Under the pieces are notes generated by a model. It made no database searches. It saw only the letters and a list, made by a program, of their open reading frames with translations, and was not told where the DNA came from. The translations under genes were made by a program, and so were the position numbers. Positions 6,811 through 22,249 of a stretch of 64,000 nt of DNA are shown one piece after another. How positions within the stretch are numbered: position 1 is the stretch's first letter; each line of letters begins with the position of its first letter. Source of the stretch: Raphanus sativus (Eukaryota > Streptophyta > Magnoliopsida > Brassicales > Brassicaceae); the NCBI RefSeq assembly GCF_000801105.2, contig NC_079519.1, forward strand, positions 5,268,668-5,332,667, read 5' to 3'.

Positions 6811-6820
6811 AAGTTTGCAA
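6811..6820. repeat. Left target-site duplication of the MULE
   Basis: AAGTTTGCAA, repeated exactly at 22240-22249 just outside the other end of the element. MULEs make 8-10 bp duplications. Confidence 0.75.
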
Positions 6821-6836
6821 GGGAGAATTACCAATT

Positions 6837-6866
6837 GTGACTCAAAACTTGGAATCAAACCCAAAA
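6837..6866 (+). repeat. Left terminal inverted repeat of the MULE
   Basis: GTGACTCAAAACTTGGAATC is the conserved core. Outside it, 6821-6836 is a weaker-matching terminal stretch. Confidence 0.7.
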
Positions 6867-6979
6867 AAGTACTCCAACTTGGATCAAAGCCAAAAATAAC
6901 CTAAAAGGCTATTAAAATTACAAATATCTCCTTGTGAACAAACAAAAAAACGGATTTTTTTTTACGTTTCTACCCCTCG

Positions 6980-7570
6980 CAAGTCATCTGTAAACAGACG
7001 ACTTGAAAATAAGTCGTCCAGACGACTTTAAGTTAAGTCGTCTGGACAGTTATTCTTAAACATAATTTAAAAATTTTGTAAAAAATATTTTGATAAGTGA
7101 AAAATTGGAATTATGTAATTAACATATGTCTTAAGAGATATAAATTAATATATAACAAATTTCAATTGTTTTCAGCCCAGATGAGTGAAAGTAGTGAATC
7201 ATGATATTCTTTAGTTTATGTTTCATCAACATATGTTGTAGTATTGTATGTGTTCTTAGGGTTAGATTTTGGAAAGCATCAAAACCGTTTTTGAAATTTT
7301 TTAAAATTACCTAGACGTGTTCATTTCTGTGTATAGTAAACACTATTGAAGTATAATTTGATTTTATAACGTGGTTAGTAAGTTAATTTAGTCATTTTAG
7401 TTTAGGGGTTCATTTTAGGGTATTGGACGACTTAATATTTAGTCTTCTGTTCCCAGACGACTAAATATTAGGTCGTCTGATGTACATTATCAGCCAGAAT
7501 AAGTCGTCTAAACCGGACCAAACCTTAAAGCTTACCAATGTACTTTTAAAGCTAACCGGATTATTTACCC
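6980..7570. repeat. 5' subterminal region with palindromic GACGACTTA/TAAGTCGTC motifs
   Basis: Motif pairs occur at about 7000-7060 and 7423-7510, in AT-rich DNA that otherwise has no coding potential. The same motif saturates every other non-coding part of the element. Confidence 0.7.
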
Positions 7571-7572
7571 AA

Positions 7573-7579
7573 TATATAA
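7573..7579 (+). promoter_or_regulatory. TATA box of the DUF1985-Ulp1 gene
   Basis: TATATAA about 480 bp before the ATG. It is followed by a pyrimidine-rich leader containing a 5' UTR intron (7954-8042, GTAAGT...TTTTTTCAG). Confidence 0.55.
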
Positions 7580-7611
7580 GGTGATTTTTTTTTTTCATTT
7601 TCCGCAAAATT

Positions 7612-7953
7612 CAGAAACCCTAACAGTTCTCTCTCACCGGCGATATCAAAGGCGATTCGAATTCCCACTATTTCTGAACAACCATCATTCTCAACGTTGG
7701 CTATCTATCTCACTTCATTCTCACCGTTGTCGCCGCAGCTTCTTCTAACCCTAGCGCCGCCGATTCCTCTAAACCCTAGCGCCCCCGCTTCCACTATTTC
7801 CTAACAAACCGTCGCCCTCGCCACCGTGCTCACCAACATTCTCACCGCCGCTTCCTCTAAACACTAGCTAGCACCGCCGCTTCGTCTAAACCCTAGCGCC
7901 GCCGCTTCTTCTCTGTAAACCGTAGCGCCGTTTCTCTGTAAACCCTAACGCCG
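7612..7953 (+). repeat. Leader of imperfect repeats bearing telo-box (AAACCCTA) motifs
   Basis: Units close to CTAAACCCTAGCGCCGCCGC recur about six times. AAACCCTA/ACCCTA cores lie near 7616, 7747, 7771, 7888 and 7940. Telo-boxes are typical of promoters and leaders of growth-linked plant genes, so the element may recruit the same factors (inference). Confidence 0.55.
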
Positions 7954-8055
7954 GTAAGTCATCAAACTCGTGGAAAAGATGAACATAAAACGTTGTCTCT
8001 TTCAATTTAATTATTCTCACCGTTTCACGTTTATTTTTTCAGATCTATAACCACA

Positions 8056-11000
8056 ATGACGAGTACTCCAACTCCTTCTGCGACTAATCAGGTCCGCTTG
8101 AAATTTTTCTACTGGAAGACTTGTAAGTAAGTCGTCTGGGAAGTCTTCAACCTGGACGACTTAGTACGTCCATTTGGAAGACTTTCCAGACGACTTAAAT
8201 ATAAGTCGTCAACTAAGTCGTCCAGTTGGGCGACTTTCTAAACGACTTATATTTAAGTCGTCTACTAAGTCATCTGGAGTAACAATTAAGGTGTGATTGA
8301 TTTAGCTTGTGTTCTGACTTCTATTGTTGTCTTTGATTATTTTGCAGACAAAAAGGATGGATATTCCAGAACTCCCCCGTAGGTTATACACATTAGGGGA
8401 AGAGCCAGAACCCCACAATAGCATTTCGTATCATACGGATAACACGAAGTTGCATACTGCTCTTAGGAAAGCTCTCACTGATGCTGAATTTGAAGAGCTC
8501 AAGGAGTCGAGATTGGGAGTTTTCATCAAGTTCAAGGAGCAGGGATTTGGTTGGGCTTCAAGGCTGGTTCACTACTTGCTCGGTTTAAAGCTGGACATTA
8601 AGAAGAAGTACGAGATGTGGTGTCTCGTTGGTCCAGAACCTGCGAGGTTTTCACTGTTAGAGTTTGAAAACATCACTGGTCTAAACTGCGAGTACATCGA
8701 GGATCTTGAGACACCAGAATGTGAAGTTACCCCAGAGATGGCTTCTTTCTGGGGGATGATGGGAGTTCATCTGGAAGCTGGGCCAACTACTGATCAGATA
8801 ATAGCAGCACTGAAGAGATGCGGGGATTGGTCCAGGGAAGATCGCAAGCGACTCGCGTACCTTTCCATCTTCACTGGATTCATTGAAGGGAGAAAGTTCT
8901 CAAGCGCTACACGAGCTACTCTGGCAAGGCTAGTGATGGATTTAGAACGGTTTGAGAATTATCCATGGGGGAGAATCGCGTTTAAGGTGCTGATGGACTC
9001 TTTGTGGAACAAAGATTTTACTGGCTGTTACACCGTGGATGGGTTTATACAAGTTCTTCAGGTCTGGGCGTACACAGCTATTCCGGGATTGGGTGCTAAT
9101 ATTGGTCTACCCAGAGCAAACAGTCCGTCTCCACCGATTCTGGCTTACGAGGGCAGCAGAGGCCGCAGATTCATGAAAGCTGCTATCTTGAGTCAGGTAC
9201 CTTTCCATCTTCACTTAATTAAGTTGTCTGGAAATCTTCCAGCTGGACGACTTAGTAGACGACTTATTATAAGTCGTCTGGAAGGTCTTCCAGCTGGACG
9301 ACTTAGTAGACGACTTATTATAAGTCGTCTGGAAGGTCGTCCAGCTGGACGACTTAGTAGACGACTTATAATAAGTCGTCTGGAAGGTCGTCCAGCTGGA
9401 CGACTTAGTTGACGACTTATAATTAAGTCGTCTATTTAGTATTTTGTTTCAAATATCTAACTTGATTCTTCTTCTATTTACTGCAGACCCGCGTGATCAA
9501 CTTTGTTGAGAAGGACATTAGTGAAATGTGGCCAAAATGGGACTCTGAAGTTGAGGTCGTGCCCGCGGAGAACATCATTAAAGTCATGTATGATCGGAGA
9601 CCGTGGAAGTGGACCATGGATTGCTGGGAAGTCAGTGGTACAAAACCTAAGTTTGTGACTCCATCGAAAAGAGCCAAACAGATGGTTGTGGTGGAGGTGG
9701 AGGAGGAGGAGGAAGACAATCAGAGACCTCGGAAGAAAGCTCGTAAAGAGACTCCTAAAGAGGCTCCTAAAGAGGCTAGAGAAGAGGCTCCTAAAGAGGC
9801 TAGAGAAGAGGCTACAGAAGAGGCTAGAGAAGAGGCTAGTTGGGTGACCAGAGAGGAGTTAGAAAATATGTTCAAGGACTTAAGAAGTGGCTTAGGTGAC
9901 ATGATGAAAGATGGGTTTAAGAAGTGCATCAGGGAGATTAGGAAGATGTCCGATAGATTGGAAGCTGTGGAGAAGAAGGTTGGTGTCACCAATCAGGCTA
10001 CCCCTCAAGCCAAAGAAACCGGGATTAGTAACAAACAGCCTACCCCTCAAGTCCCAGAAACCGGGGTTAGTAACAAACAGACTACTCCTCAAAAGGATCA
10101 GCCTACACTTCAAACCAATTATCCTACTCCTCCCACCAGACAACCTGCTCCTCAAAAGGCAAAGCCTACTTCTCAAACGAAACAACCTGCTCCTCAAACG
10201 AAACAGCCTGCTCCTCAAACGAAACAGCCTGCTCCTCAAACGAAACAGCCTACTCCTCAAAAGGCAAAGCCTTCTCCTCAAAAGAAACAGCCTTCTCCTC
10301 TGCCCAAAGAGGTTAGTATCAAATCCTCTCCCAACAAGAATTAAGTCGTCCAGGGTCTTCTAGTTGTCCAGACAACTTTTATTTAAGTCGTCCAGGGTCA
10401 ACTAGTCGTCCAGACAACTTTTATTTAAGTCGTCCAGGGTTAACTTGCAACTTTTATTGCAGAGATTGTTGCTGGAGGATACATCAGATGAGGCGATCTC
10501 GGTATATAAGATCTTGCCGGAGGATAAAGCAGATGGTGTCACCTCCAAAGAGATTGTTCCTCTCACTTCCACTGACCGACCGAGCTTCGCTTCCAACGAT
10601 CAACAACCGAGCTTTGCTTCCATCGATCCAAGCGTTCCAGTTTCAGAACCGAGCCTGGTTGTATTGGACAAAACAGCTCCCACTGCTTCTGTGCGTGCAA
10701 GGAGTGAACGAACGAAGAAACCTGCTCCCACGCAGATATCTCCTTATACGGCAGAGAGAAGGAAACTCCTTAGAGTGGGAAAGTATAATCCATTTCCCAC
10801 ACTAAACAGACCTAAGATGAAGGAGCTCGCTGATTGGTTGAAAACTGATCCGTAAGTGATTGCTTTACCCATAATAGCTTGATTTAGTCTACCAAAACTG
10901 ATTGCTTTTTTGTTTGCAGTGATTATTTCACTAAGCAAGAGGACAAACCACGTACATCACCAACTTGGTGGTATCAAAAACTCCGGACACCCAAAGCATG

Positions 11001-11812
11001 GCTGGAAGACGTAGTAAGTCTTCTGCTTATCTTTAAGTCGTCTGATAACTTGTCTTTGTATAGATTTGTAAATATATAAGTCGTCTGGAAGGTTCTAACT
11101 TGTATTATTTTATATGCAGCATATAGATGCTTGGATGAATGTGCTGAGGCAGAGGTATAAGGAGAACCCACAATGTTTCCGGAGCGAGCGAATGTGCTTC
11201 CTGGATCACAACTTTACCCAGTCTTGGAGAGAACAGTATCTGTTCTTCAAAGCATCGTCGTCTGATCACAATGGTTTAGGAAGAATGCTACCTAGTGGGG
11301 CGGCGAGTTTGTATGACGGATCAATGCCTTCATTTTGCCAATCAAACAAGAAGTGGGGGGAGGACATTGATGATATCTATGCGCCACTGAACTTGGACAA
11401 CAAACATTGGGTTGCTATTTGGATATCGATCCCTAAGAGGCACATAGTCGTCTGGGACATCATACCTTCATCTACCATACCAGAAAGATGGGATGAGATA
11501 ATGGAGCCTTTTCTCGAGATGGTCCCTTATCTGCTTATTGAGTGCGGAGACCAGATGCATGGGTTGGAGCGATACACATATGAGAGACTGCTGAAAGATG
11601 TACCCACGGCCAAGAATGGTGATTGTGGCGTGTACGCTGTAAAGTACAGTGAATGTCATGCTCTTGGGGTCCCCTTTAGCCCTAAAGACTTTGCTAGGTC
11701 CAATGCGAAGACTATGAGGGATAATATGGCTGTGGTTATATGGACGGAGCTTGTTGATCAGCATTTGAAAGATAATGAGGATGGTGGTATGTTTGTGGGC
11801 ATGTATGATTAG
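8056..11812 (+). CDS. Transposon-borne DUF1985 + Ulp1-like (C48) cysteine protease protein
   Basis: Six exons, 8056-8091, 8348-9196, 9487-10311, 10463-10851, 10920-11013 and 11120-11812, join with GT-AG sites and consistent phases to give 961 aa. Residues about 55-180 are DUF1985-like (LVHYLLGLKLDIKKKYEMW, RFSLLEFENITGLNCEY). Exon 3 encodes an acidic K/E/A repeat (KEAPKEAREEA type) likely to form a coiled coil, then a P/Q/K tract of seven-residue QPAPQTK repeats. The C terminus is an Ulp1-type protease with the whole triad: H827 in NKHWVAIW, D844 in VVWD and C900 in GDCGVYA. Ulp1 proteases cleave SUMO or related isopeptide bonds; the substrate of this transposon class is unknown. The introns are made largely of the element's palindromic motif. 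The frame is intact here, unlike the second copy. Confidence 0.85.
8105..8290. repeat. Motif cluster in intron 1 of the DUF1985-Ulp1 gene
   Basis: About nine direct or inverted AAGTCGTC/GACGACTT cores lie between the donor at 8092 and the acceptor at 8347. They form several short hairpins. Confidence 0.75.
9235..9430. repeat. 51-bp tandem palindromic repeat in intron 2
   Basis: About four units, starting at 9235 and 9286 and continuing at 51-bp spacing. Each contains CCAGCTGG, GACGACTTA and TAAGTCGTC, so each unit can fold on itself. Reading exon 2 into it gives a false repeated Leu/Arg peptide. Confidence 0.85.
10345..10450. repeat. Motif cluster in intron 3 of the DUF1985-Ulp1 gene
   Basis: Units of about 45 bp containing AAGTCGTCCAGGGT and GTCCAGACAACTTTTAT, repeated two to three times between exons 3 and 4. 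The second assembled copy begins inside this intron. Confidence 0.65.
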
Positions 11813-11814
11813 AT

Positions 11815-12020
11815 ACACAAATCTAACTTGTATAGATTTTCTAACTTGTATAGATACACAAATCTATTTGTATATTTGAACTATTTGTATACACAAATCT
11901 ATTTGTATATTTGAACTATTTGTATACACAAATCTATTTGTATGTTTGTGGGCATGTATGATTTATTTGATTTTCTAACTTGTATAGATTTTCTAACTTG
12001 TATAGATTTTCTAACTTGTG
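11815..12020. repeat. AT-rich minisatellite after the protease gene
   Basis: ACACAAATCTATTTGTATAT and TTGTATAGATTTTCTAAC units are repeated several times directly after the stop codon. The same array follows the second copy at 17780-17985. Confidence 0.7.
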
Positions 12021-12021
12021 T

Positions 12022-12181
12022 AAGGTTTTCCAGCTGGACGACTTACAAATAAGTCGTCTGGAAGGTTTTCCAGCTGGACGACTTACAAATAAGTCGTCTG
12101 GAAGGTTTTCCAGCTGGACGACTTACAAATAAGTCGTCTGGAAGGTTTTCCAGCTGGACGACTTACAAATAGTCGTCTGGA
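12022..12181. repeat. 40-bp tandem palindromic repeat between the two MULE genes
   Basis: Four units start at 12022, 12062, 12102 and 12142. Each contains CCAGCTGG-ACGACTTA-CAAA-TAAGTCGT-CTGG. The array sits between the convergent 3' ends. Degenerate units continue to about 12450. Confidence 0.88.
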
Positions 12182-12448
12182 AGGTTTGAACGACTTACAA
12201 ATAGGTAGTCTAAAAATAGTAGAAGGTAGTCTAAAAATAAAATACACTGGACGACTTCGTAAAAGGTCGTCTAAAAAAAATACACTTGAAGGGATAGTAG
12301 AAGGTAGTCTAAAAATAAAACACACTGGACGACTTAGTAGAAGACTTAGTAGAAGGTTATCTGGTAGACGAAACACTGGACGACTTAGAAATTAGTCGTC
12401 TGACGGGTAATCAAGACTGGACGACTTAAATTTAGGTCGTCTGGACAA

Positions 12449-14836
12449 CTAGTCAACTGGTTGTGTACATTATGGTTTCGTATGGCCAGTTTCCTTGCAG
12501 TTTGAGCATCTCCGTGCCCTGTGTTTCTTCCTGGGTTTGTGTCCTCTCATCCTAGATAGCTCCAACCAAGATTGCCATCTTGATTTCTTCTGTCTCCCGG
12601 ACCACGCTTTACGTTTGGAGGAAATCATTCTCGTTCCTCAATATGTTGTGACACGATAGGATATATTTCTCTGAGTATCCTGCATACAGATGATTCTTTG
12701 AGTAAAGTGGACATACAAGTGTGTCGATATGCACACAGCATGTGTTCCAGCTGCTATAGCATGAGAGCAAGGTATTTTCTCCACTCAATAGACACCACAA
12801 TCACACTTTACATGTTCCAAATCAACCACACAGTCCATTTTGCCACCTTTGACAAAGAAACGCCATCCATCAATTGGTTCGACCGTCATCGTATCCGCTA
12901 TCTCTGATCGAACAGCAAGCAAGTATTCAACACTCCGGCTATGTTCAGTTGAGAGACTCAAAGCATCTTGTCTCCTTTTCCAATACCATTTTCCTAACTT
13001 CTGCCTTATGAACTCCAGCAGGAACGGAATCGGAAATCCTCTTGCTCGCTTCAGTGCGGAATTAATAGATTCAGCGATGTTGCTTGTTTTTATGTTGAAC
13101 ATGTTCCCCTTACAATAAACCCTTGACCATAGCCTGGCGTCGGCCTTCTCCAAATACGTTGCAAGTTCCGGGTTTGCACTCCGTATCTCAGCCATGTACC
13201 GGTCAAAATCGTAAACCGTGTGCGCATAAGCAGCCCCTTTCACCAAGTACATGAGATGTTTCCCTTTAAACTTTTTGACAATGTTATCTTGAAGGTGATA
13301 ATAACATATTCCTCGGGTTGCCCAAGGAAACACCTTCTCACACGCACTTTTAATGGCCGCGTGCCGGTCAGAGACTATCACCAGAGGCTTGTCATGAGAT
13401 ATACAACTAGCCAATTTTGTGAAAAACCATTCCCAAGAAGGTTCATCTTCAGCATCCACGATCCCAAAAGCCAATGGGAATATCTGAAAATTGCCATCTT
13501 GTGCGGCTGCAACTAACATAACACCTCCATACTTTCCACTTAGGTGAGTTCCATCCACCACAATGACCCTTCTCTGATACTTAAAACCTTTGATAGAAGC
13601 TCCAAAAGAGAGAAATAGATACTTAAATCTTTTCTTAGAATCAAGTTCTATAGCCGTGATAGAATCAGGATTTGCAATGGAGATTTGCTCGAGATATGAA
13701 GGCAGACGCGAATACCCTTCTTCTGCTGATCCTCTCACCAATTTCTGTGCATATAACAGTGCTCTGTATGAAGTGGTGTAATCAAGCGTCATGCCAAACA
13801 TGTTCTTCATTGCATCAGTGATATGCTGTGGAGTTATCCCATCAATGATCCCAACACGATCAATGAAAAGACTACCAACATACTTTGGAGTACAGTGTCT
13901 CCGCTGAGCGATTCGGTCTCCAATTGAGCATAAATGTTTTTCCACATACTTTGTTACCCAAAACGTGTTTGGCCCATGTTTCACACTCGCTCTGATCTTC
14001 CATCCACAACCGCTAACCCGACATATTGCCACAAGGAGAGTTTTTGTTGATTTGTATATTCTGAAAGAAAACTTACCCCTCACTGCTGTCAACCGCAGCT
14101 CTGAAAGCAGTGCATCCTTGCTAACAAAACTCTGGTTGACATAGATGCTGGTACAATCCGATTTTCCTCCTTCAATAGCATTTGTCTTAGCATATGTCTT
14201 TTCAATTTCTTCAAAACAAATATTATCATCATCTTCCTCGTCCTCATCTAGAACCTTTCCATAAAGACTGTAATCCCCACCATTCTGATCCGTTTCACCA
14301 ACAATAGTGTTATCAGCATCCTCCTCCCCATTTTCCTCCTCCCCATCTTGATTTTCATCTTCAACAGACTCATTATCACCAACATCTTCAAAACATTCAT
14401 CAGCTTCATCATTATCACCAACATCTTCTTCCCATTCACCAGCTTCATCATTATCACCAACATCTTCTTCCCATTCACCAGCTTCTTCTCTTTTCTCTGA
14501 AACCGTTTCCACCTTGCTGCGGCTTGATACACAAAGACATACTCTATGCGTTTTGAGTATCTCGAGCAAGTTTCGAACTTGTCTATCACTTGTAACATGA
14601 ATGGGAGGACTGCCTGGAGTCATCATCATTTCTGCTGGTAATGAGTAGCTAATCTCCACAGTCACTGATCTCATGTCCAGGTTATAATCTTCTTGAGCCA
14701 TTGCAACAAGTTCAGCATGTGTTGAATCTTCATTCAATAAAAACAATCTTGCTCCTTTGAGATCATCAACCACAAAATCCCAACGGAAATCTCTCAACAA
14801 CCATTCTCCATACACTGCATGTAACTTAAAAATCAT
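12449..14836 (-). pseudogene. MULE (mudrA-type) transposase, copy 1, interrupted near the C terminus
   Basis: The start at 14836 is the ATG directly after a TTTGCAG acceptor; a 5' UTR intron (14837-15780) precedes it. The open part runs 684 codons to a TGA at 12785-12787. In order: an N-terminal region, an acidic triplicated GEWEEDVGDND repeat, a MuDR DNA-binding region (CRVSGCGWKIRA ... WVTKYVEKHLC), and the transposase core with D428 (VVDGTH), D490 (VSDRH), the CYYH motif and E589 (NIAESINS). All three catalytic acids are present. The TGA falls inside the SWIM zinc finger, between CDCGVY and VEKIPCSHA. Homology continues in shifted frames to a CCHC zinc knuckle (CSNCKETGH) that has a second stop, TAA, at 12470-12472. 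The natural end is probably TAG at 12449. Confidence 0.85.
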
Positions 14837-15905
14837 CTGCAAATATTCAAAATAAAACACATTAGTAAACATAGAGAAAATGAAGAAGTTCAATAAACAT
14901 TATCGCAGACGACTTAGATTTAAGTCGTCCAGAAGACTTTAAGGTAAGTCGTCTAAAGAGGTCACTTTTGCAATTGAAAATTAAAAGGGACGACTTAATT
15001 CTAAGTCGTCCGGCTTTGTTTGTTAAAAAAAAAATTTCAGACGACTTATATATAAGTCGTCTACGAAAAACGGGCTAGTTTTGCATTTGACCGAATCGTG
15101 TCAGATCTTTGACTATTTCTGGACGACTTATAATTCAGTCGTCTCTGGAAAGTAAAAATTTCAATATTTTATTCAAACTAGACGACTTACGTGTAAGTCG
15201 TCCTAGGTTAGTTTTGTAATTGAAAAATAAAACTTGAAATTTAACTTTCTCCAGACGACTTAACTAAAATTCGTCCAGCTAGACGACTTAATTTAAGGTC
15301 GTCCGGGATAAGCAAGGTTTGACCAGAAAATTGGGAAAAATTCTGGACGACTTTGCTTTCCCCGGACGACTTTAAATTAAGTCTTCTGACGGGACGACTT
15401 TATATTATGTCGTCTGGTAAAAGTTAAATTATGAAGTTTTATTTTTCAACTACAAAACTAACCTAAGACGACTTACACGTAAGTCGTCTAGTTTAATAAA
15501 ATATTGAAATTTTAACTTTCCTAGAGACGACTGAATTATAAGTCGTCCAGAAATAGTCAAAGATCTGACACGATTCGGTCAAATGCAAACTAGCCTGTTT
15601 CTCGTAGACGACTTATATATTAAGTCGTCTGGAGTGTTTTTTTTCAACAAACAAAGCTGGACGACTTAGTTTTAAGTCGTCCGTTTGACCAGAAGACTCA
15701 TCAGTAAGTCTTCTACATACAGATGACTTACTTGTAAGTCTTCTACGCGAACAGATTTTGAAAAAAAATTCAATTCGTACCTTAAACTAGGTGAGATGAC
15801 TTTCGTTTGCACACAGGGGTTTTCTCCAACCACCCAGAACCTCAAACGAAAGCAACCGTAAGTCAAAACGAAAGAAATATGGCTCTGTCAACCATCGCCC
15901 ATATT
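14837..15905 (-). other. 5' leader exon and leader intron of transposase copy 1
   Basis: The donor AAG|GTACG is at 15781/15780 and the acceptor CAG abuts the ATG at 14836, giving a leader intron of 944 bp. A short upstream ORF beginning MVDRA lies in the leader exon. The intron holds the large inverted repeat described separately. Confidence 0.55.
14989..15683. repeat. Long imperfect inverted repeat in the transposase leader intron, copy 1
   Basis: The left arm 14989-15235 and right arm 15434-15683 are reverse complements over about 245 bp with scattered mismatches. The spacer is about 200 bp. Matching landmarks include GGCTTTGTTTG/CAAACAAAGC, AGATCTTTGACTATTTCTGG/CCAGAAATAGTCAAAGATCT and TAGTTTTGTA/TACAAAACTA. 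Each arm also carries five or so of the small palindromes. A transcript of it would form a long hairpin. Confidence 0.88.
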
Positions 15906-16189
15906 TGAATCAAAAGCTTGAGTTTTTTGGATGAATATGGAGAGAAAGTGAAGAAATGTTGTTTTTTAGTTATAACAATTGAAACAGAGAGAGTTGTAAG
16001 AGATTTACGTGCATTAAAGGCATTAAAAAGCTCCAAACATTCGTACAAGGTTGTTCCCCACTATTCATGGCAGTGGCAATATTGTAGATACTTGAAGAAA
16101 AATGAGGTTGAGACAGTAAAAAAGCCATTTCGAAAAAAAAAAAAGGTTAATGGCATTTTCGTAGATAAAATGCAGATGTGGGTTAAAAA

Positions 16190-16289
16190 NNNNNNNNNNN
16201 NNNNNNNNNNNNNNNNNNNNNNNNNNNNNNNNNNNNNNNNNNNNNNNNNNNNNNNNNNNNNNNNNNNNNNNNNNNNNNNNNNNNNNNNN
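16190..16289. other. Assembly gap of exactly 100 N
   Basis: The round length indicates an arbitrary scaffold gap. The sequence left of it (10326-16189) and right of it (16290-22158) are two versions of the same 5.86 kb. Confidence 0.98.
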
Positions 16290-16425
16290 CTCTCCCAACA
16301 AGAATTAAGTCGTCCAGGGTCTTCTAGTTGTCCAGACAACTTTTATTAAGTCGTCCAGGGTCAACTAGTCGTCCAGACAACTTTTATTTAAGTCGTCCAG
16401 GGTTAACTTGCAACTTTTATTGCAG

Positions 16426-17777
16426 AGATTGTTGCTGGAGGATACATCAGATGAGGCGATCTCGGTATAATAAGATCTTGCCGGAGGATAAAGCAGATGG
16501 TGTCACCTCCAAAGAGATTGTTCCTCTCACTTCCACTGACCGACCGAGCTTCGCTTCCAACGATCAACAACCGAGCTTTGCTTCCATCGATCCAAGCGTT
16601 CCAGTTTCAGAACCGAGCCTGGTTGTATTGGACAAAACAGCTCCACTGCTTCTGTGCGTGCAAGGAGTGAACGAACGAAGAAACCTGCTCCACGCAGATA
16701 TCTCCTTATACGGCAAGAGAGAAGGAAACTCCTTAGAGTGGGAAAGTATAAATCCATTTCCCACACTAAACAGACTAAGATGAAGGAGCTCGCTGATTGG
16801 TTGAAAACTGATCCGTAAGTGATTGCTTTACCCATAATAGCTTGATTTAGTCTACCAAAACTGATTGCTTTTTTGTTTGCAGTGATTATTTCACTAAGCA
16901 AGAGGACAAAACCACGTACATCACCAACTTGGTGGTATCAAAAACTCCGGACACCCAAAGCATGGCTGGAAGACGTAGTAAGTCTTCTGCTTATCTTTAA
17001 GTCGTCTGATAACTTGTCTTTGTATAGATTTGTAAATATATAAGTCGTCTGGAAGGTTCTAACTTGTATTATTTTATATGCAGCATATAGATGCTTGGAT
17101 GAATGTGCTGAGGCAGAGGTATAAGGAGAACCCACAATGTTTCCGGAGCGAGCGAATGTGCTTCCTGGATCACAACTTTACCCAGTCTTGGAGAGAACAG
17201 TATCTGTTCTTCAAAGCATCGTCGTCTGATCACAATGGTTTAGGAAGAATGCTACCTAGTGGGGCGGCGAGTTTGTATGACGGATCAATGCCTTCATTTT
17301 GCCAATCAAACAAGAAGTGGGGGGAGGACATTGATGATATCTATGCGCCACTGAACTTGGACAACAAACATTGGGTTGCTATTTGGATATCGATCCCTAA
17401 GAGGCACATAGTCGTCTGGGACATCATACCTTCATCTACCATACCAGAAAGATGGGATGAGATAATGGAGCCTTTTCTCGAGATGGTCCCTTATCTGCTT
17501 ATTGAGTGCGGAGACCAGATGCATGGGTTTGGAGCGATACACATATGAGAGACTGCTGAAAGATGTACCCACGGCCAAGAATGGTGATTGTGGCGTGTAC
17601 GCTGTAAAGTACAGTGAATGTCATGCTCTTGGGGTCCCCTTTAGCCCTAAAGACTTTGCTAGGTCCAATGCGAAGACTATGAGGGATAATATGGCTGTGG
17701 TTATATGGACGGAGCTTGTTGATCAGCATTTGAAAGATAATGAGGATGGTGGTATGTTTGTGGGCATGTATGATTAG
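16426..17777 (+). pseudogene. DUF1985-Ulp1 gene, copy 2: exons 4-6 only, frameshifted
   Basis: Corresponds to exons 16426-16814, 16883-16977 and 17084-17777 of the intact gene. Exons 1-3 are absent because the copy starts in intron 3. Single-base changes break the frame: an extra A in GGTATAATAAG (about 16466), lost C bases near 16644 and 16692, an extra A in GACAAAACC (about 16909) and an extra T in GGGTTTGG (about 17528). The last shift separates the His/Asp part of the protease from the catalytic Cys. These may be sequencing errors rather than biology. Confidence 0.8.
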
Positions 17778-17998
17778 ATACACAAATCTAACTTGTATAG
17801 ATTTTCTAACTTGTATAGATACACAAATCTATTTGTATATTTGAACTATTTGTATACACAAATCTATTTGTATATTTGAACTATTTGTATACACAAATCT
17901 ATTTGTATGTTTGTGGGCATGTATGATTTATTTGATTTTCTAACTTGTATAGATTTTCTAACTTGTATAGATTTTCTAACTTGTGTAAGGTTTTCCAG

Positions 17999-18160
17999 CT
18001 GGACGACTTACAAATAAGTCGTCTGGAAGGTTTTCCAGCTGGACGACTTACAAATAAGTCGTCTGGAAGGTTTTCCAGCTGGACGACTTACAAATAAGTC
18101 GTCTGGAAGGTTTTCCAGCTGGACGACTTACAAATAAGTCGTCTGGAAGGTTTGAACGAC
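17999..18160. repeat. 40-bp tandem palindromic repeat, copy 2
   Basis: Four units equal to those at 12022-12181, again followed by degenerate GACGACTTA units to about 18415. Confidence 0.85.
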
Positions 18161-18416
18161 TTACAAATAAGGTAGTCTAAAAATAGTAGAAGGTAGTCTA
18201 AAAATAAAATACACTGGACGACTTCGTAAAAGGTCGTCTAAAAAAAATACACTTGAAGGGATAGTAGAAGGTAGTCTAAAAATAAAACACACTGGACGAC
18301 TTAGTAGAAGACTTAGTAGAAGGTTATCTGGTAGACGAAACACTGGACGACTTAGAAATTAGTCGTCTGAACGGGTAATCAAGACTGGACGACTTAAATT
18401 TAGGTCGTCTGGACAA

Positions 18417-20807
18417 CTAGTCAACTGGTTGTGTACATTATGGTTTCGTATGGCCAGTTTCCTTGCAGTTTGAGCATCTCCGTGCCCTGTGTTTCTTCCT
18501 GGGTTTGTGTCCTCTCATCCTAGATAGCTCCAACCAAGATTGCCATCTTGATTTCTTCTGTCTCCCCGGACCACGCTTTACGTTTGGAGGAAATCATTCT
18601 CGTTCCTCAATATGTTGTGACACGATAGGATATATATTCTCTGAGTATCCTGCATACAGATGATTCTTTGAGTAAAGTGGACATACAAGTGTGTCGATAT
18701 GCACACCAGCATGTGTTCCAGCTGCTATAGCATGAGAGCAAGGTATTTTCTCCACTCAATAGACACCACAATCACACTTTACATGTTCCAAATCAACCAC
18801 ACAGTCCATTTTGCCACCTTTGACAAAGAAACGCCATCCATCAATTGGTTCGACCGTCATCGTATCCGCTATCTCTGATCGAACAGCAAGCAAGTATTCA
18901 ACACTCCGGCTATGTTCAGTTGAGAGACTCAAAGCATCTTGTCTCCTTTTCCAATACCATTTTCCTAACTTCTGCCTTATGAACTCCAGCAGGAACGAAA
19001 TCGGAAATCCTCTTGCTCGCTTCAGTGCGGAATTAATAGATTCAGCGATGTTGCTTGTTTTTATGTTGAACATGTTCCCCTTACAATAAACCCTTGACCA
19101 TAGCCTGGCGTCGGCCTTCTCCAAATACGTTGCAAGTTCCGGGTTTGCACTCCGTATCTCAGCCATGTACCGATCAAAATCGTAAACCGTGTGCGCATAA
19201 GCAGCCCCTTTCACCAAGTACATGAGATGTTTCCCTTTAAACTTTTTGACAATGTTATCTTGAAGGTGATAATAACATATTCCTCGGGTTGCCCAAGGAA
19301 ACACCTTCTCACACGCACTTTTAATGGCCGCGTGCCGGTTAGAGACTATCACCAGATGCTTGTCATGAGATATACAACTAGCCAATTTTGTGAAAAACCA
19401 TTCCCAAGAAGGTTCATCTTCAGCATCCACGATCCCAAAAGCCAATGGGAATATCTGAAAATTGCCATCTTGTGCGGCTGCAACTAACATAACACCTCCA
19501 TACTTTCCACTTAGGTGAGTTCCATCCACCACAATGATCCTTCTCTGATACTTAAAACCTTTGATAGAAGCTCCAAAAGAGAGAAATAGATACTTAAATC
19601 TTTTCTTAGAATCAAGTTCTATAGCCGTGATAGAATCATGATTTGCAATGGAGATTTGCTCGAGATATGAAGGCAGACGCGAATACCTTTCTTCTGCTGA
19701 TCCTCTCACCAATTTCTGTGCATATAACAGTGCTCTGTATGAAGTGGTGTAATCAAGCGTCATGCCAAACATGTTCTTCATTGCATCAGTGATATGCTGT
19801 GGAGTTATCTCATCAATGATCCCAACACGATCAATGAAAAGACTACCAACATACTTTGGAGTACAGTGTCTCCGCTGAGCGATTCGGTCTCCAATTGAGC
19901 ATAAATGTTTTTCCACATACTTTGTTACCCAAAACGTGTTTGGCCCATGTTTCACACTCGCTCTGATCTTCCATCCACAACCGCTAACCCGACATATTGC
20001 CACAAGGAGAGTTTTTGTTGATTTGTATATTCTGAAAGAAAACCTACCCCTCACTGCTGTCAACCGCAGCTCTGAAAGCAGTGCATCCTTGCTAACAAAA
20101 CTCTGGTTGACATAGATGCTGGTACAATCCGATTTTCCTCCTTCAATAGCATTTGTCTTAGCATATGTCTTTTCAATTTCTTCAAAACAAATATTATCAT
20201 CATCTTCCTCGTCCTCATCTAGAACCTTTCCATAAAGACTGTAATCCCCACCATTCTGATCCGTTTCACCAACAATAGTGTTATCAGCATCCTCCTCCCC
20301 ATTTTCCTCCTTCCCATCTTGATTTTCATCTTCAACAGACTCATTATCACCAACATCTTCAAAACATTCATCAGCTTCATCATTATCACCAACATCTTCT
20401 TCCCATTCACCAGCTTCATCATTATCACCAACATCTTCTTCCCATTCACCAACTTCTTCTCTTTTCTCTGAAACCGTTTCCACCTTGCTGCGGCTTGATA
20501 CACAAAGACATACTCTATGCGTTTTGAGTATCTCGAGCAAGTTTCAAACTTGTCTATCACTTGTAACATGAATGGGAGGACTGCCTGGAGTCATCATCAT
20601 TTCTGCTGGTAATGAGTAGCTAATCTCCACAGTCACTGATCTCATGTCCAGGTTATAATCTTCTTGAGCCATTGCAACAAGTTCAGCATGTGTTGAATCT
20701 TCATTCAATAAAAACAATCTTGCTCCTTTGAGATCATCAACCACAAAATCCCAACAGAAATCTCTCAACAACCATTCTCCATAAACTGCATGTAACTTAA
20801 AAATCAT
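18417..20807 (-). pseudogene. MULE transposase, copy 2, with nonsense and catalytic-site mutations
   Basis: Same gene as 12449-14836. An internal stop (CGA to TGA) follows DRQV at about 20541-20543 and cuts the frame into a 106-residue N-terminal piece and a long downstream frame. The second catalytic aspartate is changed: VSDRH reads VSNRH at 19338-19340. The SWIM-domain TGA (18756-18758) is shared with copy 1. Downstream, copy 2 keeps the proper frame (CSHA, HIDTLVCPLYSK) where copy 1 has one-base losses, but it has a further TGA and the same TAA in the zinc knuckle. Confidence 0.85.
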
Positions 20808-20954
20808 CTGTAAATATTCAAAATAAAACACATTAGTAAACATAGAGAAAATGAAGAAGTTCAATAAACATTATCGTAGACGACATAGATTTAAGTCGTC
20901 CAGAAGACTTAAAGGTAAGTCGTCTAAAGAGGTCACTTTTGCAATTGAAAATTA

Positions 20955-21655
20955 AAAGGGACGATTAGTTCTAAGTCGTCCGGCTTTGTTTGTTAAAAAA
21001 AAAATTTCAGACGACTTATATATAAGTCGTCTACGAAAAACGGGCTAGTTTTGCAATTGACCGAATCGTGTCAGATCTTTGACTATTTCTGGACGACTTA
21101 TAATTCAGTCGTCTCTGGAAAGTAAAAATTTCAATATTTTATTCAAACTAGACGACTTACGTGTAAGTCGTCCTAGGTTAGTTTTGTAATTGAAAAATAA
21201 AACTTGAAATTTAACTTTCTCCAGACGACTTAACTAAAATTCGTCCAGCTAGACGACTTAATTTAAGGTCGTCCGGGATAAGCAAGGTTTGACCAGAAAA
21301 TTGGGAAAAATTCTGGACGACTTTGCTTTCCCCGGACGACTTTAAATTAAGTCTTCTGACGGGACGACTTTATATTATGTCGTCTGGTAAAAGTTAACTT
21401 ATGAAGTTTATTTTTCAACTACAAAACTAACCTAAGACGACTTACACGTAAGTCGTCTAGTTTAATAAAATATTGAAATTTTAACTTTCCTAGAGACGAC
21501 TGAATTATAAGTCGTCCAGAAATAGTCAAAGATCTGACACGATTCGGTCAAATGCAAAACTAGCCTGTTTCTCGTAGACGACTTATATATAAGTCGTCTG
21601 GAGTGTTTTTTTTCAACAAACAAAGCTGGACGACTTAGTTTAAGTCGTCCGTTTG
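20955..21655. repeat. Long inverted repeat in the transposase leader intron, copy 2
   Basis: Duplicate of the 14989-15683 hairpin, with the same arm landmarks at about 20985-21205 and 21405-21650. Confidence 0.85.
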
Positions 21656-22194
21656 ACCAGAAGACTCATCAGTAAGTCTTCTACATACAGATGACTTACT
21701 TGTAAGTCTTCTACGCGAACAGATTTTGAAAAAAATTCAAATTCGTACCTTAAACTAGGTGAGATGACTTCGTTTGCACACAGGGTTTTCTCTAACCACC
21801 CAGAACCTCAAACGAAAGCAACCGTAAGTCAAAACGAAAGAAATATGGCTCTGTCAACCATCGCCCATATTTTGAATCAAAAGCTTCAGTTTTTTGGATG
21901 AATATGGAGAGAAAGTGAAAGAAATGTTGTTTTTAGTTCATAACAATTGAAACAGAGAGAGTGTAGAGAGATTTATGTGCATTAAAGGGCATTAAAAGCT
22001 CCAAACAGTTCGTACAAGGTTGTTCCCACTATTCATGGTAGTGGCAATATTGTAGATATTTGAAGAAAATGAGGTTGAGACAGTAAATAAGCCATTTTCG
22101 AAAAAAAAAAAAGGTTAATGGCATTTTCGTAGATAAAATGCAGATGTAGGGTTAAAAACTCAAAAAAAAAAAATGAGTCAAAAGAAAAGATTAG

Positions 22195-22224
22195 TTTTCT
22201 GTTTGACTTCAAGTTTTGAGTCAC
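22195..22224 (-). repeat. Right terminal inverted repeat of the MULE
   Basis: CAAGTTTTGAGTCAC and flanking bases are the complement of the left end (GTGACTCAAAACTTG). Confidence 0.7.
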
Positions 22225-22239
22225 TTTTGCAATAAGCTC

Positions 22240-22249
22240 AAGTTTGCAA
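22240..22249. repeat. Right target-site duplication of the MULE
   Basis: AAGTTTGCAA, identical to 6811-6820. Confidence 0.75.

What the first reader, a model, noticed from the sequence alone, without database searches (positions are those of the whole stretch)
6980..15690. A palindromic GACGACTTA...TAAGTCGTC motif saturates the non-coding parts of the MULE and avoids its exons
The motif pair occurs dozens of times in the subterminal region, in most introns of the protease gene, in the intergenic spacer and in the transposase leader intron. It is essentially missing from exons of both genes. This layout is what one expects of a sequence-specific recognition code. Arabidopsis VANDAL MULEs are known to encode a VANC protein that recognises short motifs spread through their own non-coding DNA and reverses silencing. 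By analogy (inference), the DUF1985-Ulp1 protein or the transposase of this element may read this motif. A distinct motif/protein pair would be a new member of such systems.
Basis: partly seen in the sequence, partly recalled or inferred. Interest (0 to 1): 0.88.

Follow-up and report, generated by a model that had tools for sequence, protein, structure and literature searches.

The report
Radish jumping gene's self-address motif
A radish jumping gene has peppered its non-coding DNA with a short mirror-image sequence that probably lets one of its own proteins find it and undo the plant's silencing; related jumping genes carry other versions, and cabbage relatives seem to make small RNAs from such sequences.

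Summary
One copy of the element (window 6821-16189) holds 56 GACGACTTA/TAAGTCGTC: 56 in 4,415 bp non-coding, 0 in 4,954 bp coding. The hits at 16306-21649 are an assembly artefact. The motif forms inverted dyads, GACGACTT-N6-AAGTCGTC; genome-wide GACGACTTA-N4-TAAGTCGTC occurs 4,372 times, spacers 5-12 together 65, spacer 0 five (N3 not obtained). The element is a MULE with degenerate ends and an open six-exon gene joining DUF1985 to a Ulp1-type protease. DUF1985 matches the chain of a solved VANC21-DNA complex. The motif tracks the protein: 30 of 30 fetched close copies carry it, two families at about 45% identity carry mainly AAGTCTTC, and 14 of 14 DUF1985+DUF287 loci (VANC21 clade) have none. 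Best reading: a VANC-type self-address read by a DUF1985-Ulp1 (KIU-like) protein. That kind is known; the dyad layout looks like a new variant. Some published broccoli 'miRNAs' match the element. Binding and methylation were not tested.

The parts
6811..6820 (.). target-site duplication, left copy (AAGTTTGCAA)
   Evidence: same 10 bases at 22240-22249
6821..22239 (.). whole MULE as assembled; about 9.45 kb once the false duplication and the gap are discounted; degenerate terminal repeats
   Evidence: ends flanked by the duplication; rc of right end shares GTGACTCAAAACTTG with left end
7010..7508 (.). left subterminal motif cluster (four 9-mers)
8043..8091 (+). DUF1985-Ulp1 gene, coding exon 1 (ATG at 8056)
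   Evidence: spliced frame open over 960-962 aa, depending on two alternative splice donors
8092..8347 (+). intron 1, six 9-mers; two published broccoli small RNAs match exactly
8348..9196 (+). coding exon 2: DUF1985
   Evidence: Pfam E 2.3e-26; VANC21 9lnj E 1.2e-5
9197..9486 (+). intron 2: array of 51-bp units, twelve 9-mers; RNA folds into one long hairpin
   Evidence: z -17.0
9487..10311 (+). coding exon 3: charged and peptide-repeat region
10312..10462 (+). intron 3, three 9-mers
10463..10851 (+). coding exon 4
10920..11013 (+). coding exon 5
11014..11119 (+). intron 5, two 9-mers
11120..11815 (+). coding exon 6: Ulp1-type peptidase C48 with His, Asp and Cys
12037..12428 (.). motif array in the spacer between the convergent genes (40-bp units), ten 9-mers
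12785..14836 (-). MULE transposase (MURA/VANA-like); frame ends at a stop inside the SWIM-like finger
   Evidence: Pfam MULE 3.4e-23, Transposase_mut, DBD_Tnp_Mut; (SWIM assignment by eye)
14838..15780 (-). transposase leader intron, nineteen 9-mers, largely an imperfect inverted repeat (14984-15686)
16190..16289 (.). 100-N assembly gap
16290..22158 (.). false second copy of 10326-16189 (contig overlap)
22240..22249 (.). target-site duplication, right copy

Best explanation
The motif is the element's self-address: a VANC-type cis code read at the DNA level by the element's own DUF1985-Ulp1 protein. A DUF1985 pair, or one protein with two contacts, binds the inverted dyad (half-site AAGTCGTC, 22 bp in all) that is repeated through introns, spacer and leader, and relieves silencing of this family only; the tethered Ulp1 domain may strip SUMO from silencing factors there. 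Arrays grow by tandem duplication, and the half-site drifts with DUF1985, so each family keeps a private address. The host answers with small RNAs from the same hairpin-forming repeats. Shown here: anatomy, enrichment, near-fixed spacing, family specificity among fetched loci, homology of DUF1985 to a DNA-bound VANC21. Inferred: binding, dimerisation, demethylation, SUMO step, host response.
For: Enrichment in non-coding DNA only. Dyad spacing: 4,372 at N4 against 65 for N5-12 together and 5 at N0; 21 distinct spacers at gap 6, five at gap 5 and seven at other gaps in 35 sequences. DUF1985 homology to VANC21, whose solved entry is a complex with its target DNA. 30 of 30 fetched close loci, one of them the window copy itself, carry the motif in both flanks with 0 in the exon. 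Graded change: AAGTCGTC/AAGTCTTC counts 19/4 at 89% identity, 31/19 at 67%, 14/12 at 66%, 3/21 and 2/21 at about 45%; 14 of 14 VANC-clade loci have 0 AAGTCGTC and at most 1 AAGTCTTC. In a DUF1985 tree of 27 rows the three motif classes need 2 changes, the least possible. Array size varies between copies: 5 to 29 9-mers in the 1.5 kb after the exon, as Hosaka 2017 (PMC5735166, parts 1-3 of 6 read) describes for VANC21 targets. 76 of 137 scored matches share one bit score (my count of the rows), which points to recent proliferation.
Against: No binding or methylation data. The protein lacks DUF287 as far as scanned and forms a clade apart from VANC21. VANC21 motifs lie in one orientation (PMC5735166), as do those within the arrays of four radish VANC-clade loci looked at, whereas here they are inverted. 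The co-variation rests on few independent families: two with AAGTCTTC, L005/L054 are mixed, and the AAGTCGTC group has only 79/78 support in the tree. The Ulp1 domain has Thr where SENP1 has its oxyanion Gln (read by me), so catalysis is uncertain. The DUF1985 models are weak (mean pLDDT 56). The N3 dyad count could not be obtained.
Confidence: 0.64

Rival explanations
1. The inverted repeats act as RNA: transcribed introns fold into hairpins that are diced, so the motif is a small-RNA source (host trap or regulatory by-product) and not a protein site.
For: Intron 2 RNA folds at -149.3 kcal/mol, z -17.0. Broccoli small RNAs match exactly: Bro-m0076, Bro-m0170 and a listed miR400-3p (10,669 reads) in introns, Bro-m0079 and Bro-m0154 in the DUF1985 exon.
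Against: Hairpin dicing does not need one 8-base word, one spacer length with many spacer sequences, or a word that changes with DUF1985. The motif also lies outside introns. This can be true beside the best explanation.
Confidence: 0.2
2. The motif is a transposase-binding subterminal repeat, as recalled for Ac/Spm-type transposases.
For: Clusters towards both ends; the MULE transposase has a MuDR-type DNA-binding domain.
Against: Densest in the protease gene's introns; none in about the outer 175 bp on the left and 590 bp on the right. L006 has a transposase only 52% identical yet the same motif with a 95% identical DUF1985, so there the motif follows DUF1985.
Confidence: 0.06
3. Neutral tandem-repeat growth in non-coding DNA of a selfish element, kept out of exons by coding constraint.
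For: Arrays of 51- and 40-bp units vary in number; exon absence equals the chance expectation.
Against: The same half-site and spacing sit in places with many different spacers and persist in a relative at 67-72% protein identity.
Confidence: 0.08

Closest known systems
VANDAL21/VANDAL6 with VANC21/VANC6 (Hosaka 2017, PMC5735166, parts 1-3 of 6 read; Sasaki 2023, PMC10398659, passages read)
   Same: MULE with degenerate ends; DUF1985 protein; short motifs in tandem arrays in introns, spacers and ends, private to the family; RdDM aims at the same regions. VANC6 motifs AGTTGTCC/AGTTGTAC differ from AGTCGTCC by one and two bases.
   Different: No DUF287 found; Ulp1 domain present; motif in inverted dyads of near-fixed spacing, not one orientation; DUF1985 in a separate clade.
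KIU (Kaonashi ULP-like) VANDAL/MULEs (named in review PMC13317346, passages read; Hoen 2006 and Sasaki 2022 seen only as references there)
   Same: MULE gene with a Ulp1 domain; the review says KIU-carrying VANDALs recognise motifs in KIU-carrying elements and induce hypomethylation.
   Different: Species and possibly motif; two genes found here, three described. Whether the inverted dyad or this motif is in Sasaki 2022 could not be checked.
Ulp1/SENP SUMO proteases
   Different: Fused to DUF1985; oxyanion Gln replaced by Thr here and in P0005 and P0007 (read by eye).

Membership tests
VANC of VANDAL elements | DUF1985 domain | tested here: met
   (E 2.3e-26); VANC21 chain 9lnj E 1.2e-5
VANC of VANDAL elements | DUF287 domain | tested here: not met
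   not found in exons 2, 3 and 6 (exons 1, 4 and 5 not scanned) nor listed for the close homologues P0005 and P0007
VANC of VANDAL elements | family-private short motif in non-coding arrays | tested here: met
VANC of VANDAL elements | motifs in one orientation | tested here: not met
   28 per strand; inverted dyads
VANC of VANDAL elements | sequence-specific DNA binding and hypomethylation | not testable with these tools
   needs EMSA/ChIP and bisulfite data
KIU-carrying VANDAL/MULE | MULE transposase plus Ulp1-domain gene in an element with degenerate ends | tested here: met
KIU-carrying VANDAL/MULE | three genes | tested here: inconclusive
   two genes found; no dedicated search for a third
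KIU-carrying VANDAL/MULE | clusters with Arabidopsis KIU proteins | not tested
   no sequence identified as an Arabidopsis KIU protein was retrieved
Ulp1/SENP SUMO protease | fold and His, Asp, Cys residues | tested here: met
   and the sequence
Ulp1/SENP SUMO protease | oxyanion-hole Gln | tested here: not met
   Thr at that place (VPTAKNGDCG); alignment read by eye

The most novel reading that the evidence does not exclude
DUF1985 proteins of the Ulp1-bearing clade read an inverted 22-bp dyad as a pair and tether a SUMO protease to the element, a different wiring from the one-orientation VANC21 arrays; and DUF1985 readers of both clades use one frame, AGTNNT(A/C)(C/T), in which the NN pair is the family address (AT VANC21, TG VANC6, CG here, CT in the sister families).
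Probability: 0.3. Interest if true: 0.82.

Novelty: new variant of a known kind. Interest (0 to 1): 0.62.

Why it matters
VANC-type anti-silencing has been studied in Arabidopsis. Here a crop genome holds over a hundred DUF1985-Ulp1 copies at 91-100% identity with a strict dyad address, plus sister families whose address differs by one base in step with the reader domain. That offers a natural series for finding which DUF1985 residues set specificity, and a way to ask what the Ulp1 domain adds. It also suggests that some Brassica 'miRNAs' in the literature are small RNAs of these elements.
Full report
What is there. The window lies in a 433-Mb assembly (G000, contig C9). Its contig lengths equal those of Raphanus sativus records returned by the protein searches (C5 39,956,999 and C7 25,868,459), so I take it to be radish. 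A Mutator-like element runs from 6821 to 22239 as assembled, flanked by a 10-bp duplication AAGTTTGCAA. Its ends share only a short stretch, GTGACTCAAAACTTG. A 100-N gap at 16190-16289 splits it, and both contigs carry the same 5.86 kb (98.9% identical), so the second copy is an assembly artefact; the real element is about 9.45 kb.

Genes. On the + strand six coding exons from 8043 to 11815 give an open frame of 960-962 aa, depending on two alternative splice donors. Exon 2 is DUF1985 (E 2.3e-26) and exon 6 a Ulp1-type peptidase C48 (E 1.4e-30). Homologues with both domains occur in Raphanus (95% over the queried part), Brassica, Sinapis, Eutrema and Microthlaspi (best 120 of 208 listed). On the - strand lies a MULE transposase whose frame stops inside what looks like the SWIM finger.

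Motif. In the single real copy 56 exact 9-mers, 28 per strand, lie in 4,415 bp of non-coding DNA and none in 4,954 bp of coding DNA. Synonymous shuffles also predict none in exons, so the fact is enrichment outside, not proven purging inside. All 17 adjacent inward pairs under 60 bases apart have a spacer of 5, 6 or 7 bases. In 35 sequences (the window element, L005-L009, L011-L039) gap 6 has 21 distinct spacers (219 pairs), gap 5 five (135 pairs), and gaps 2, 7, 17 and 18 together seven (13 pairs); outward pairs cluster at gap 18 (19 spacers, 207 pairs), which reflects the repeat units. Genome-wide, GACGACTTA-N4-TAAGTCGTC occurs 4,372 times, with none for the reversed control; spacers of 5-12 give 65 in all and spacer 0 gives 5. 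The N3 count was not obtained. Many of the 4,372 will be transposition copies, so the number of spacer types is the fairer measure.

Family and co-variation. The DUF1985 exon finds 137 scored matches in the genome out of 1,118 candidates, a lower bound; by my count of the rows 76 share one bit score, some of them on short unplaced contigs. Ten fetched ones (L030-L039) have two exon haplotypes, 99.98% identical on average, so proliferation was recent. All 30 fetched loci, one of them the window copy, carry the motif on both sides and none in the exon; array sizes differ. More distant families shift from AAGTCGTC to AAGTCTTC with falling DUF1985 identity; neither word fell in a tblastn-coding stretch of L005 or L054-L057. 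In L008 one 9-mer lies at the edge of a coding match. Fourteen loci of the DUF1985+DUF287 clade, the clade of VANC21, have no AAGTCGTC and at most one AAGTCTTC; these are 4.5-kb stretches around the DUF1985 match, not whole elements. Some carry other repeated words, in one orientation within an array: L040 AGTTATCC every 19 bp, and L050 AGTTGTAC ten times, which is VANC6's published AC-type motif. On the DUF1985 tree of 27 rows the three classes need the minimum of two changes; near copies inflate the shuffle test, only two families have AAGTCTTC, and the AAGTCGTC group has 79/78 support.

Small RNAs. I copied by hand 165 distinct sequences from the 184 rows of putative novel miRNAs of broccoli (PMC4920421, section 16 read whole), dropping repeats. 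Eleven carry the 8-base core, four match the window exactly (two of them in the DUF1985 exon, without the core), and 0 of 825 letter-shuffled sequences come within three mismatches. Four other sequences without the core match elsewhere or weakly (m0004, its partner, m0122, m0123; one to three mismatches). Of the 84 conserved entries I tested ten: the one listed as miR400-3p (10,669 reads) matches intron 2 exactly, miR3440b-3p matches the DUF1985 exon with one mismatch, and miR831-5p matches the acidic stretch of the transposase exactly; the other seven gave nothing within three mismatches. Among the 184 novel rows the largest, third and fourth counts (2,669, 1,356, 1,286) carry the core. Five of the eleven core-bearing sequences match at least one of 44 radish sequences of this family set exactly (these overlap and are near copies), six match none exactly, and none matches the 14 VANC-clade loci. 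Four cabbage miRNAs from PMC3840582 (Table 2 passage) were tested; bol-miR9410 and bol-miR9411 carry the core but have no exact match here. Intron 2 folds as one long hairpin (z -17.0).

How it works. The best-supported reading is a VANC-type address. Hosaka 2017 (PMC5735166, parts 1-3 of 6 read) shows VANC21 binding short motifs in non-coding DNA of its own family, with tandem growth and fast change; Sasaki 2023 (PMC10398659, passages read) shows RdDM aiming at the same regions. The features here match, apart from orientation and domain make-up. The review PMC13317346 (passages read) states that Ulp1-bearing VANC genes (KIU) also recognise motifs in their own elements, citing Sasaki 2022, which I could not read. 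So the kind is known, and I file this as a new variant because of the inverted, spacing-fixed dyad. In my literature searches no listed title or passage gave this motif for a MULE, but the word search for the motif listed only 30 of 1,224 papers, and most subscription papers are not held. Dimeric binding and local deSUMOylation are inference.

Noticed in passing
window 16190-22158: The assembly carries a false duplication: 10326-16189 is repeated after a 100-N gap, with differences crowded at the contig end.
   Followed up: yes
window 8175-8198, 8546-8566, 8927-8947, 9363-9384: Published broccoli 'miRNAs' (Bro-m0076, m0170, m0079, m0154 and one listed as miR400-3p) match this element exactly, so they are probably transposon small RNAs.
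   Followed up: partly
window 8822-8842: miR3440b-3p differs by one base from the DUF1985 exon, so a listed conserved miRNA may derive from or aim at DUF1985 genes.
   Followed up: no
window 14226-14249 (- strand): A listed miR831-5p matches the acidic repeat of the transposase exactly; the sequence is low in complexity.
   Followed up: no
G000 genome: 76 of 137 scored DUF1985 exons share one bit score, and ten fetched ones are nearly identical: a very recent burst in radish. 8 of these 10 have larger intron-2-side arrays (26-29 9-mers) than the window copy (15); the other two have 8 (cut by a contig end) and 5.
   Followed up: partly
window 10075-10326: A 21-bp minisatellite in exon 3 encodes a KQPAPQT-type peptide repeat; VANC proteins are reported to have variable repeated peptides too (PMC5735166).
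   Followed up: no
L006: A copy with 95% identical DUF1985 but a 52% identical transposase and a 49-64% identical protease part: a likely recombinant element.
   Followed up: no
L009: A stretch with 23 motif 9-mers and mostly correctly spaced dyads but no match to the two element proteins: probably a non-autonomous relative.
   Followed up: no
L050: A radish VANC-clade locus with ten AGTTGTAC, the same word as the published VANC6 AC-type motif of Arabidopsis.
   Followed up: no
window 11819-11948: A 35-bp tandem repeat (ATACACAAATCTATTTGTATATTTGAACTATTTGT) lies just after the protease gene's stop.
   Followed up: no
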